NCBI GenBank assembly: GCA_947568835.1 | Contig: OX387606.1 | Location: 21,181,225 to 21,245,224 of the forward strand | From: Protonemura montana | Lineage: Eukaryota; Arthropoda; Insecta; Plecoptera; Nemouridae | DNA length: 64,000 nt | Reading direction: 5' to 3' | Part shown: piece after piece, positions 19,501 to 25,500 of the stretch | Layout: each line of letters begins with the position of its first letter | How positions within the stretch are numbered: the stretch's first letter is position 1 | Program-made: the position numbers and the translations under genes | The notes under the pieces: generated by a model | Databases searched by the model: none | What the model saw: the letters and a program-made list of their open reading frames with translations, nothing else | What the model was told of the DNA's origin: nothing

Positions 19501-22500
19501 GCTAAGCTGCTCAAAAGGTGTTGGAAGTCGTAATATGTGTTTTCTGTGGCTCACGTTCAAATGCCGCGTTCTGAATCCAGTCTCGAGTTCTTGCGGAACG
19601 ACCGAGATGCCTAAAACAATTAACAAATTGCATTGCCGTTCATTATTTCGTCCACTTGCTCCCATACGTGCGAGTATACCACGCGTACCGAGCGAATGTA
19701 CGCGAACATAGGTACCTAGCACTTAGCTGGTAAAATAATTGTATAATCACTTACTTTTGTGCATGCTTTCAGACGACCGTTACATGATTATAGCCTCACA
19801 ATTATTCCACAAGTGCAGCGCATGAAAGGCAATGCACGTGCGACACGCTTTTTGAGGTTAGGAAAATGCAATTGCTTTATCGTATGTCAACCCGCGCTTG
19901 TTTTTCACTAAAGGAGCAATTCCAGGAAGTGCTCATGTGTGCAAAGAGTCTACCAAAAATCTTGCAGAAAGCGTTCCGTTTAATACACAAATTCATAGAA
20001 ATTGAATGGAGGTAAACTACACGCTAAAAAATTTGGAGTGAAAATTTCACTCCTTGAATGAGTGGCGTCTAATTTGACACTTGAAAGAGTGGTTTTCTGT
20101 AATATTGACTCCCAAATGTGTTGTTTTCCCACTCTTTGACAAGGAGTGCACAGAATTAGCTCTTTGGAATGAGTGCAGGGTATCGGGTACTTATTAAAGG
20201 AAGCGGTTAACTCCGGATTGAGGCTGGAGCAGTGGCTGGAGCTTACGTGAGAAATGCTGAATCTACATTTCGACAGTCATTCAACTATTATGAGAGTGTG
20301 ACTCATATCTTACTACCCAGCGAACTGTCGATTCGGAGCATTTTTAACTTTCATTCAGTAGCTACCTCGGTCTTGAAGTGAAGTGATCAGTGCGTGTCGC
20401 AACTCGCCATGGAGGAAGAATGTGTTATGAATTTGGACTTGGAAGGTCTTCGACTTTTTCTAATCAAAAAAGGAATTCCGGAAGAATTGGCAAATGCTTT
20501 CAAAGGTAATAGAACATTATGATCAAACTTTGAATTGCACACGAGGTACTTGGATTTTTATAGGTAAATTTCAACGCTTGCTTTACAGGTAACTCTGATG
20601 CAGTTTACTAAACCAGATGAATCGACAAAAGGTGAAATCCAAGATCTTATGGACGATACATTTGAAATGAGGAGGAAAGAAATAAACGAGAATTCGCCTT
20701 CCATAACTGACATCATTGGGAAGTACCCTAGGCTGATCGACTTTGATGGTAACCAGGTACGCTGCACGCATTATACTTTTAAACAGCAAACTCTTTGATA
20801 AAACGTTCTTATAATCCTTGCAGTCCAATCATTTCCTACTTGTTTCAGGTAAATCGCGAATTCAACCGAATGGAAGAGAGCAAGTCAACAAACTTTTTAT
20901 CGAAGTTCCGAAAAAGCTGTACTTCTCGGATACTGAAGTATTGCGAACAATTCAAACCCAAGTCCTTCAATATGTCAAAAAAAAATAGCAAATGGTAAGC
21001 ATAACACCACATGTTTTATGATTTCGATTATTACCTATCGCAAATCGCGATAGGTAATAAGAATATTAATAATTTCCACTGGTAATTTGACATTTGCAGA
21101 TGATCTTCGAGCAATTTTGCTTCTGGCGACTCTGCTGCCAGCATGCAACGCCAGCAAGAAAAAACTTCTGGCGACGCAGTACTTGAAAAGGGAACGGCGA
21201 TCCCCAACGACTCTCTTTTGCGGTTTGTTAAGGTACGTTTAGTTTGACTGTTTCCACTTTCGCTATAAAATGATGCTCTTCAAAATTTTGGCTTCATAAA
21301 TTGTAATAGATAATGGCGTGTCTACACTGTATGATTTTGTAAAAATCCTGACAATTTTCCCAAACCCATCAGTTTATTAAATTAAAGTCATCACTAAATA
21401 GGATATTGTGAAAAAAATTAAATAAGTCACTGTAAATAAAGCTTGAAGTATCTTCTCCATGATAAGATATATCATGCACCTCACACCTGTCCAGCAACGT
21501 CACACTGATTACAAGATTGACTATTAAAACAAGCTCTAATTTAATGTCGATACTTTCAGGCAGGGGCAGACATTACCGCCTTCGTCAAGGCGAGCACGCA
21601 AGGGGGGGGGGGGAGAGGTCCAACCGTTCCTCCTGTGTGTTGGCAGCCTGGAGGAGGGAGGCGATTACTTTATCGTCGCGGATAGATTTCATGTCGCAGT
21701 CGGCAAGTGCCCAGTAAGGGCTTTTGACTTGTTGTTTAAAACGTTCTATGTTTTTAATGTAGCATACCCATCGAACTTGATACGTTTCTACAATTTTGTC
21801 GAAACTCGCCTGTATGTAATGAATGTTAAGTCAAGCAACCTTGCGGCTACAGCAGGGCTAGACGCGTCCCTGTTGAACGTTCAAATTGATTAAAATGTAT
21901 GACAATATGACAATATAAAATTTATGAGAACATTAGTATTGCTACCCAGATCGCTTGGAATTTGAAATATGCTAGGAGTTATGACTAAAGTATTAAACTA
22001 TTTAAGATAAGTATATCACACAAAAAGAGTTTAAATAAATTCAATAAATTTGCTTACTTAAATGAGAATTTCTCTGACCTTGAGAACATTCAAAGAATTG
22101 TTTAATTTGTGTTAAAATTGTAATTTAATCGATGGCGATCTGTTCTCTCTGATTTTTGTCTCTTCACTTCTAATTTCATTATAGAGAGTTGGTTTTATGT
22201 CTGCATTTTGAACTCTACTTCCAGTTGTACTTGCTATACTTAATGATGAATCGGTTAATTTCTCTTGAAATTGCAATTTAATCGTGGCGATCTGCATTCT
22301 CTAATTTTTGTCTCTTGACCTCTAATTTCAGTTATAGAGAGTTCATTGTGGAATTTAAAAAATTCAATACATCATTTCACCCATTTTTTCTGCTTAAAAT
22401 TCAATTTTTATTTCTGTTTTCAATAAAATATTTTTATGATCCGAAATTAATTCGTTGTAATATTTCCACCTTCAAAAAGTACAGCTTGATAGACCTTGCC

Positions 22501-25500
22501 CATGACTAAAATAAAAATGTCACGTAAGGAGTAAAATGTACGATCATGCGATGCACTTGCAATGCAGCAATGCATGCACACGAGCATCTAGCGAAAAATA
22601 ATAAACAACTTCAGGTGACAGGTCTATCAAGGCGTACGAAATTATCCTTTTTACAGGATTCCAATGAATTCTTTCACTCACTCGTTTTGGAGCATTGCAA
22701 TCCCAGGAAATTTTCGAATATTTCGAAACTAGAGTCGAAATTTTTGACTCGTTAAAGGAGTGAAATAAAATGTCTCTTTCGAGAGAATGACTTCCACTCA
22801 TTATGGAGAGGGCACATTTTGTCGTTTTAAAAGAGTGAGAATGATCCTTTCATGGAGTCCAAATATTTCACTCAATGAAAGAGTGAAATGAGATGACTCA
22901 TTCGAAAGAGCGAGTTCCACTCCCAAAGGAGAGGGCACATTTTGTCGTATTAGAAGAGTGAGAATTGACTCTTTTGGAGTGGTTTTTGACTCCAATTTTT
23001 TTAGCGTGTATCGTAATTTAAAAGTCTGAATTTTTAACGATGACATTTTCTGTGATGCGACATTTTAATGCACCAAACCAAAACTGAACTTGAGTTCTTG
23101 CAAGCAGTGCACCCAGGGGTTTACCAAGGGGTGTACCTGTACCAAGGGGTGAACCTGTACCAAGGGGTGTACCTGTACCAAGGGGTGTACCTGTACCAAG
23201 GGGTGTACCTGTACCAAGGGGTGTACCTGTACCAAGGGGTGTACCAAGGGTGTGTTCCAAGTCCTAGCAACAAGCTTATGTCAGATTCCCGTCATGGTCC
23301 GCGATGTCGTCTCGATATTGTTAATTATCAGATAGTAGCCTGTCCCTATGAACACCGGGGAGTCTTATTTTAAGAAGCTGCTCTTAGCACGCTTCCGACG
23401 GGGAACGGGGGGATAGGAGATACTCGTCTTGAATGAGCTAACAGCTGGGCCGGTCCTCCGAAGCAAGAATTAACACCGCAAAATGAATTTTCCCTCAGCG
23501 GGGCTCAAACAATCTTGAAAAACATGCATTGGTGTAGTTCAAGTTTAAAAACGCGTATCAATGGAATTTTAAAACTCATTTGTGCACAATTTCGCCCAAA
23601 ACTCGGTGTTTTCTTTTCTTTGTCAATGATTTGGCCGCTGCCGAGGTTCCAGAACTTTTTCTGGAGCTATGTGGCATTTAATAACGTAGAAAGTACGTAC
23701 CGCTCATAACACCGCTGCGTTGTCACCGTCTAAACATAGCTTAATATCTGTTAAAGTGCATTCGAAATGTGCACTCGGCTCATTAAACCGATTTTAAGCA
23801 CTCTTCTGGGGCAAATAGCCACGAAGATGTCGGCCACCCATAGAATGCGTAGGCAGCCTGCAACGCACGACCGTTCACGTAGCGACTGTCCGGTTAGGTG
23901 CCCGGCGTATCCAAGTGGGTCGGAGCCACTTGAAAAATCTCTGCCCCCAGAAGGAATCGCCAAGCTGACAGTCGATCCTGTGTTGCTTATTTGAGTTAAA
24001 TGCCATTTTTGTTTCTATTTACCTGCTATGATAGGTGAATTCACTGATATAGTACCCTCTCAGACATGGTGGGCCACTGCATGCCAATTTGGATCTCGCT
24101 TCGACCTCCCTCAAGTAAAATTCGAACCCAGCACCGCCTCTGTTGTCAAAACCTAGCCTATCTTCTTGCAAGCAGGCCTCAGCCCCGTGATATTTGTCCA
24201 TCAGATATTTATTATTTGGTTGGTCCCATGTGCAGCTCTCGCCCGATCCTTTGTGTTTTATGGGCGAATGTGGCGGCCATGTGTTTGTTGGCTGTGCAAC
24301 TCTGCCAGAACACTTTCTTATCAGAGGCCGTGACGTAACAATCAAACTTGACAAGCATGCCATGGCGTGGAACAATTTGACAGAGAACAGGCGTGAAATC
24401 TGTGCTGCTTTGCAATCGGTAGGCGAGGGTCATCCATTACGCCATGGCAGTCGGTCTATAAGCTTTATTGTTGCTTCGAGTGGTGCGCGTAGACCAGATA
24501 ACCAAATGTCGATTCTTTCAGATCAGCTTAATGCCATTTGGAAAATTGAAATATTGGCCAGGATTTCTTAATGACGACACCGAGTGTTACCGACCCTATA
24601 CATGTTAGCTATTTCTGCCTATACATTAAGGCATACTCACATATAATTTTGTGTGCCCATGATTGTCATTAGTTCCTTGCATACACGCCCAACGGTTTGG
24701 CATGTTAGGAACACCGGTCCCCGTGAGATCACCGAAGTTAAGCAACACTGCGCTAAGCTAGGTATTGGATGGGTGACCATCATACACATGACCAGTTCTG
24801 TTCGAGAGAGAGGTTGAAGGGATGAAAGTAAGTACAGGCACTTCACTCGCCTTGCTTATCAACCTCTCGACATCATGGATTTGGGGAGGAATCCTGTTGT
24901 CCGAGTTGTACCGTCCTTCGGAAGAGACATTAAACCAGTTGTCCCCTTGGTGCTCTTCGACAGGAGTAGGCTACGTGCCGGCACCGGGTTGCTCTCCTCT
25001 CATCTAAGCTAGGCTGGGTTCTTGGATTATAACTCACTTCACCTCACAACTAGGTGTAGATGACAAACGATTCCAATCGACATTCGCCTCGGAGGAACGA
25101 TTCCTGCTAAGAAGCGATTTGTCCCTGTCAGCAGCAACAACAACGTCATGTCCTTTGTCTAAGCGACGAGTGAACAACACCCGGTGACTAATTGCCCAAC
25201 AATCAATCACCGCCGACTCGGCTGTCACCCAACAGTCTCGGTATTTATTTACCAAGCGAGGACTCCTCGAGCTGTGGCCCGAAATCGCGTTATTTCTGTC
25301 TCGTTTTGTCCATCTTTCTTCGCTCTCTTCGCGGCTCGTCCGTTGTCATGTCCGCATTTGTCAGCGTGATTCCACTTCGAGAGGATGAGTGATGGCAGTT
25401 TGGAAATCGCGACTCTGCCGGATTAGTCGGGCATTTCATGACCGTACAGGGGTCGTTAAAAGTTTAAAATTACATTTTGTTGACCTTGGATGTACCTAGA

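What the first reader, a model, noticed from the sequence alone, without database searches (positions are those of the whole stretch)
20018..23010. A 3-kb inverted-repeat element whose only gene is SAMD3-like, with no transposase
Seen: matching ends (CACGCTAAAAAA then TTGGAGT) inverted at 20020 and 23008, both flanked by TA, with dense GAGTG/CACTC subterminal words. Inside is a multi-exon gene of an uncharacterised, SAMD3-like family and nothing like a DDE transposase. Known: cut-and-paste elements can capture host genes, and such SAMD3-like proteins are strongly amplified in some animals. Inference: this family may spread, or once spread, as cargo or as an accessory protein of a TA-target transposon. 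I know of no description of that pairing.
Basis: partly seen in the sequence, partly recalled or inferred. Interest (0 to 1): 0.78.

Follow-up and report, generated by a model that had tools for sequence, protein, structure and literature searches.

The report
Gutted CACTA-like transposon keeping accessory gene
The 3-kb element is a real, recently moving transposon that has lost its own transposase; longer relatives show that its strange SAM-domain gene is the transposon's second gene, wrapped around the transposase, an arrangement known from maize but, as far as we could find, not reported before with this protein.

Summary
The element is real. The host genome holds 12 copies with both ends, each at a different site; 11 have a TA duplication and 1 has TG. 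All 12 keep the SAMD3-like C-terminal exon. Young copies differ by about 0.5%, so it moved recently.

The missing transposase lies in older relatives. At C2 (L073), exon 1 of the same gene and its later exons flank a CMC/CACTA-type DDE transposase on the same strand. The other half of the SAM domain follows the transposase at C2 and at a second locus, C5. A third locus (L074) joins terminal repeat, exon 1 and transposase start. In four other arthropod species, gene models fuse this transposase to SAM/SAMD3-like sequence in the same order.

Best reading: window family A and a second family B are internal-deletion derivatives, like maize dSpm, of a TA-target CACTA-like transposon whose transposase sits in intron 1 of a SAM-domain accessory gene. 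The accessory protein probably acts like TnpA on the subterminal GAGTG/CACTC arrays; that is inferred. The window copy's gene is itself a relic.

The parts
20018..20019 (.). target-site duplication TA, left
   Evidence: 11 of 12 complete copies have TA/TA, 1 has TG/TG
20020..20044 (+). left terminal inverted repeat (CACGCTAAAAAATTTGGAGT...)
20020..20182 (+). left subterminal array of GAGTG/CACTC words
   Evidence: 7 words in 165 nt against 0.38 expected
20409..20505 (+). exon 1: first half of the SAM domain
   Evidence: matches exon 1 of family B, L073 and L074
20506..20588 (+). place of the internal deletion: in L073 the transposase, the second SAM half and the core exons lie between exon 1 and the next exon kept here
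   Evidence: deletion inferred by comparison
20589..20756 (+). exon 'e2' (VTLMQF...), 61% identical to L073
20849..20994 (+). exon 'e3', 54% identical to L073
21100..21232 (+). exon 'e4'; 4 nt shorter than in oldest copy L017, so frameshifted
21560..21893 (+). exon 'e5', conserved C-terminal domain; holds a G run of variable length (21602-21613)
22668..23008 (+). right subterminal array with a 123-bp unit (22732-22965), about two units here; 9 of 12 copies show an extra match to this part
   Evidence: 10 words against 0.71 expected
22984..23008 (-). right terminal inverted repeat
23009..23010 (.). target-site duplication TA, right

Best explanation
The element is a non-autonomous, internally deleted member of a CACTA-like (CMC/CMCT) cut-and-paste transposon lineage that targets TA. 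The full element has terminal CAC...GTG repeats, subterminal GAGTG/CACTC arrays, and a SAM-domain (SAMD3-like) gene whose first intron holds the DDE transposase gene on the same strand. This is the layout of maize Spm and resembles Schistosoma SmTRC1, where one transcription unit is alternatively spliced into a transposase and other proteins. Shown by sequence: mobility, ends, target site, linkage, gene order, and past selection on the gene. Inferred: that both proteins come from one transcript by alternative splicing, and that the SAM-domain protein binds the subterminal arrays, oligomerises through SAM and helps or regulates transposition as TnpA does (I give this last step 0.4). The window family spread by using a transposase supplied in trans; which copy supplied it is not known.
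For: Copies, distinct flanks and TSDs. A second family B (at least 14 near-identical copies over 1.68 kb plus older pieces; right end 70-71%, left end 74% alike) also carries SAMD3-like exons inside CAC...GTG ends; both ends with TA on each side were read in 2 loci. L073: exon 1, transposase, second SAM half, core, e2-e5, all on one strand. L074 and L073 align at 86-89% from exon 1 into the transposase, so the transposase is not a chance nested insert, and L074 keeps a mutated left end. The second SAM half lies about 90 nt (C2) and 140 nt (C5) after the transposase frame or match. Transposase relatives: all 49 aligned (of 89 found) share D304, C419, C422 and D489; D400, H637, H641 and E661 are conserved in at least 90%; 5 of 49 match Pfam Transposase_21 and 1 Plavaka at E<=0.01. 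Of the 89 transposase relatives, 4 have a tail over 40 aa and 3 of those 4 tails are SAM/SAMD3-like (spider, ant, braconid); a fourth fusion, Eretmocerus P0091, came from the SAMD3 search. A (L017) versus L073 exons: 60/43/110 differences at codon positions 1/2/3 over 171 codons, the mark of past purifying selection. The 51 C-terminal-exon rows in the genome fall in family A, family B pieces or the transposase-linked C2 and C11 loci. Precedents: PMC1636069 (passages and section 8 read) and PMC12730594 (passages).
Against: No intact complete long copy was read: L073 has lost its left end, carries an insert between transposase pieces and has stops, and its right end was not found in L075. L073's 506-aa frame matches in Pfam only DUF1258, at E 0.01, below that family's cut-off. 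At C5 no exon 1 was found in the 2 kb upstream that I read, and no e2 or e5 match. Family C, with 17 equally scoring copies of a 30%-identical transposase, shows no SAMD3-like exon in the 2.2 kb read on either side of one copy, so the pairing is not universal. One transposase locus of the lineage (C16:23745746) has its nearest C-terminal-exon match 35 kb away; its surroundings were not read. In the duplicated C11 loci the exon order is rearranged. A third B-like locus, L072, has both ends but no clean TA on the right. SAM-domain Pfam scores are weak: E 0.0047 for the C5 exon, 0.17 for the L073 model, 0.00022 only for a model joining exons of two loci. No transcript data.
Confidence: 0.84

Rival explanations
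1. Transduplication: a nonautonomous transposon captured an ordinary host SAMD3-like gene as cargo, and the gene has nothing to do with transposition.
For: The gene is broken in young A copies and in B, so it is not needed in cis. Family C moves without it as far as read.
Against: Two families with 70-74% alike ends both carry it; transposase lies between its exons in L073 and beside its exons in C5 and L074; same order in four other arthropods; no separate host copy of the C-terminal exon found.
Confidence: 0.07
2. A Tc1/mariner-type (or other TA-target) element moves this DNA, and the CACTA-like transposase near the relatives is a bystander.
For: TA duplication is the mariner rule (recalled).
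Against: One copy has a TG duplication; CAC...GTG ends, subterminal arrays and linkage to a C(2)C/H(3)H DDE transposase fit CMCT instead; family C, with the same transposase type, also has a CAC..GTG-type end next to TA.
Confidence: 0.05
3. On function only, and compatible with the best explanation's structure: the SAMD3-like protein belongs to the lineage but serves as an anti-silencing or host-interaction factor, not as a subterminal-repeat-binding TnpA analogue.
For: Fungal EnSpm-like elements carry TET/JBP genes proposed to counter silencing (PMC12730594, passages). No DNA-binding domain was recognised in SAMD3-like proteins by Pfam.
Against: Dense subterminal arrays are shared by A and B, which suggests a protein that reads them.
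Confidence: 0.35

Closest known systems
Maize En/Spm (CACTA) and its dSpm deletion derivatives
   Same: one unit giving a transposase and a second protein, both needed for transposition (PMC1636069, passages and section 8); CAC.. ends, subterminal word arrays, transposase frames inside the first intron of the second gene, internal-deletion derivatives (these recalled)
   Different: 2-bp TA target instead of 3 bp (3 bp recalled); second protein is SAM-domain SAMD3-like; animal host
SmTRC1 of Schistosoma mansoni (PMC1636069, passages and section 8 read)
   Same: animal CACTA-like element whose shorter spliced transcripts skip the Transposase_21 frame and encode other proteins; truncated copies transcribed
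   Different: TRC-type elements begin CCC (PMC4298943 passages, which also give a 2-bp duplication for one of them); the other SmTRC1 proteins are called not detectably conserved, and the words 'SAM domain' occur 0 times in the paper
ESTA and TET-bearing EnSpm elements of fungi (PMC12730594, passages)
   Same: CMCT clade, CA..TG ends, ESTA has TA duplications, accessory gene carried
   Different: accessory gene is a TET/JBP dioxygenase; fungi
ISL2EU (PMC4482050, passages)
   Same: 2-bp duplication, two genes, animals
   Different: AT duplication, GG ends, THAP transposase plus YqaJ nuclease

Membership tests
CACTA/EnSpm-like (CMC/CMCT) transposons | DDE transposase with C(2)C and H(3-4)H between second D and E | tested here: met
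   (49 of 89 relatives); D, CxxC, HxxxH and E segments seen in L073; the window copy itself has no transposase; which residues are catalytic is my reading of the pattern
CACTA/EnSpm-like (CMC/CMCT) transposons | 5'-CA(C)..(G)TG-3' ends | tested here: met
   A CACGCTA/CACTCTA; B CACTCTA and CACGCTA
CACTA/EnSpm-like (CMC/CMCT) transposons | 2-5 bp target duplication | tested here: met
   TA in 11 of 12, TG in 1 of 12; range from PMC12730594
CACTA/EnSpm-like (CMC/CMCT) transposons | Pfam Transposase_21 match | tested here: inconclusive
   5 of 49 relatives at E<=0.01; L073 no match
Spm-type two-gene layout | transposase in first intron of second gene, same strand | tested here: met
   order seen in L073; in part at C5 and L074; introns predicted, not seen in RNA
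Spm-type two-gene layout | both products by alternative splicing; second protein binds subterminal repeats | not testable with these tools
   no RNA or binding data
Tc1/mariner | strict TA duplication and mariner-type transposase | tested here: not met
   TG/TG copy; linked transposase is CMCT type; no search for mariner genes was made
ISL2EU | AT duplication and GG ends | tested here: not met
SAMD3-like proteins | N-terminal SAM domain | tested here: inconclusive
   SAM_2 E 0.0047 for the C5 exon, SAM_1 E 0.17 for the L073 model; A has lost the second half
SAMD3-like proteins | sequence match to a protein named SAMD3 | not tested
   no such record reached; the two database hits are Frankliniella fusca P0090 and Eretmocerus P0091; name recalled

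The most novel reading that the evidence does not exclude
The amplified 'SAMD3-like' genes of animals are mostly the accessory (TnpA-like) half of a TA-target CACTA clade that has long travelled with its transposase nested in intron 1, and vertebrate SAMD3 itself is a domesticated remnant of that half. The amplification and vertebrate SAMD3 are recalled, not tested here.
Probability: 0.2. Interest if true: 0.88.

Novelty: new variant of a known kind. Interest (0 to 1): 0.72.

Why it matters
If true, it gives a home and a testable role to an unexplained animal gene family, and it extends the maize Spm two-gene, nested-transposase design to arthropods with an identifiable, conserved second protein. 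Annotators who see such genes in insects and spiders should consider that they are transposon genes. It also offers a concrete pair of parts (SAM protein, GAGTG/CACTC arrays) to test.

Tried and rejected
Discarded: (wrong spacer in the pattern). The idea that the longer A copies carry the transposase: their extra DNA is nested, with a TTAA repeat in L070 and a 5-nt overlap in the C13 copy (the C13 insert was not read). ISL2EU: rejected on target and ends. Structure of the C-terminal exon: one sequence, mean pLDDT 39.7, not used. First protein search with the A gene: none of 1,842 candidates. No PDB match for the C-terminal exon. Viral contigs: nothing for the transposase. P0010's N-terminus looked like a SAM first half; Pfam gave no match. 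Family C was tested as a SAMD3 carrier: none in the flanks read. Paper searches for the pairing: searches found 0 papers; one search found 4 and (any two of six terms) 123, of which 20 are listed; no title or abstract opening in those two listings mentions a SAM/SAMD3 protein in a transposon. One search (CACTA with TnpA/TnpD in animals) found 0. Subscription papers and Repbase were not searched.
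Full report
WHAT IS THERE. The window element runs from 20020 to 23008 with TA on both sides. In the 258-Mb host genome it has 12 copies with both ends, in 12 different flanks, plus one left-end fragment (C1:13641145); 11 complete copies are flanked by TA and one by TG. Two of the 12 are split by other inserts, with a TTAA repeat in the C1 copy and a 5-nt overlap in the C13 copy. The ten other copies were aligned: nine young ones differ by 0-1.2% (mean 0.47%), and the oldest, L017, differs from them by 2.5-3.0%. 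L017 and the fragment L033 begin CACTCTA where the others begin CACGCTA. The ends carry GAGTG/CACTC arrays far above shuffles.

THE GENE IS A RELIC. Exons are 20409-20505, 20589-20756, 20849-20994, 21100-21232 and 21560-21893 (my reading; boundaries by splice words and similarity). Relative to L017, the nine young copies lack 4 nt in the fourth exon, and across the ten copies the fifth exon has a G run of 5 to 13. Exon 1 and the next kept exon are in different phases, as expected if exons between them are missing (by inspection). So the window copy should not encode a normal protein. The gene was once under selection: L017 against L073, 171 codons differ at 60, 43 and 110 first, second and third positions.

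A SECOND FAMILY WITH THE SAME PAIRING. The right end finds a family B about 70% alike. At least fourteen copies are nearly identical over 1.68 kb and there are older pieces; the tool scored 40 of 1,710 candidates, so this is a lower bound. The copy read through is 2,171 nt, TA-CACTCTAAATAA...TTATTTTAGCGTG-TA; a shorter derivative in L069 also has TA on both sides. B too holds SAMD3-like exon 1 and the C-terminal exon, broken by a stop.

WHERE THE TRANSPOSASE IS. The old locus L073 (C2:28197600-28207400, minus strand) has exon 1, then a C2H2-like and DDE transposase region (frames of 252 and 506 aa with a piece holding the first D between them, interrupted by an insert), then the second half of the SAM domain, core exons, and exons matching the window gene at 44-61%. 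L074 on C16 aligns with it at 86-89% from exon 1 into the transposase and keeps a mutated left end; more of the transposase lies about 10 kb on. On C5 a 63-70% identical transposase is followed by the same SAM half-exon; no exon 1 was found in the 2 kb read upstream of it. Two duplicated C11 loci have the transposase next to SAMD3-like exons, with altered order. A sixth lineage locus, C16:23745746, has none near. So 5 of 6 transposase loci of this lineage have SAMD3-like exons close by, two of the five being copies of one another. A family C with 17 equally scoring transposase copies (15 of them with a 706-aa open frame, the others 558 and 530) and 2 similar ones has, in the two copies compared, a right end reading CACTGCAAAAACAGTG inwards from TA, but no SAMD3-like exon in the 2.2 kb read on either side of one copy.

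OTHER ARTHROPODS. The transposase has 89 relatives in the database search, among them ants, parasitoid wasps, a thrips and a spider, also rotifers and a fish. Forty-nine, mostly the longer ones, were aligned: D304, C419, C422 and D489 are invariant; D400, H637, H641 and E661 are at least 90% conserved. Placing D304, D400 and E661 as the catalytic triad follows the published CMCT pattern and is my reading. Of the 89, four have a tail over 40 aa beyond the transposase and three of those tails are SAM/SAMD3-like: P0031 Araneus (SAM half plus core, 38.7% over 155 aa), P0064 Nylanderia (43.5% over 62 aa), P0067 Cotesia (SAM half, 35.6% over 45 aa); the fourth, P0079, is not. P0091 of Eretmocerus, found from the SAMD3 side, is the same fusion. 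These look like gene models that ran from the transposase into the downstream exons, so they show gene order in four species.

IS ANY SAMD3-LIKE GENE OUTSIDE THE TRANSPOSON? With the L073 C-terminal exon, the whole-genome search lists 51 rows, which I collapse to 32 places: 12 family A, 14 family B, 3 older B pieces, C2 and the two C11 loci. With exon e2 there are 15 rows: C2, C11, 12 family A and one row at E 0.17 that I take as chance. Strongly diverged host genes could be missed, as the tool scores only its best candidates. In the protein database the hand-spliced L073 model found 2 relatives among the 7,994 candidates scored, so the claim that such proteins are amplified in animals is not borne out or tested here.

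HOW IT WORKS. In maize Spm a single unit is spliced into TnpA and TnpD, both needed for transposition, and SmTRC1 of Schistosoma is an animal example with alternative transcripts that skip the transposase frame (PMC1636069, passages and section 8). The parts here match that plan: transposase in intron 1, second gene around it, subterminal arrays, and internally deleted derivatives that keep the ends. Families A and B look like two different deletions, both starting in intron 1 and removing the transposase. The role of the SAM protein as array binder is inferred from layout only; anti-silencing is a fair rival, as proposed for the TET/JBP genes of fungal elements (PMC12730594, passages).

NOVELTY. 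Superfamily and design are known; the pairing with a conserved SAM/SAMD3-like protein was not found in print in my searches, which cover openly licensed PubMed Central papers only and were judged from listings. I therefore call it a new variant of a known kind.

Noticed in passing
window 23104-23265: 18-bp tandem repeat (about 7 units, TACCAAGGGGTGTACCTG) 0.1 kb outside the right end.
   Followed up: no
window 59634-60383: 41-bp tandem repeat, 18 units, 91% matches.
   Followed up: no
window 21028-21060: Perfect 14-bp hairpin in an intron of the element; copies L014 and L015 have a different version with 7 extra bases.
   Followed up: no
window 22732-22965: 123-bp repeat in the right subterminal array; 9 of 12 copies show an extra match to this part, so the number of units varies.
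   Followed up: partly
L038 921-1077: Palindrome of about 150 nt in family B, also at 9 other genome places at 79-88%; words resemble a tRNA B box (recalled).
   Followed up: no
G000 family C, e.g. C4:4896864-4898324, C12:12824683-12826143: 17 equally scoring copies of a 30%-identical transposase, 15 with a 706-aa open frame; right end CACTG..CAGTG next to TA in the two copies compared; a likely young CACTA-like family.
   Followed up: partly
P0010 (Monomorium pharaonis LOC118644388 isoform X2): Its first 29 residues look like a SAM first half in place of the first zinc-finger half, as if exon 1 were spliced to the transposase; Pfam does not support it.
   Followed up: partly
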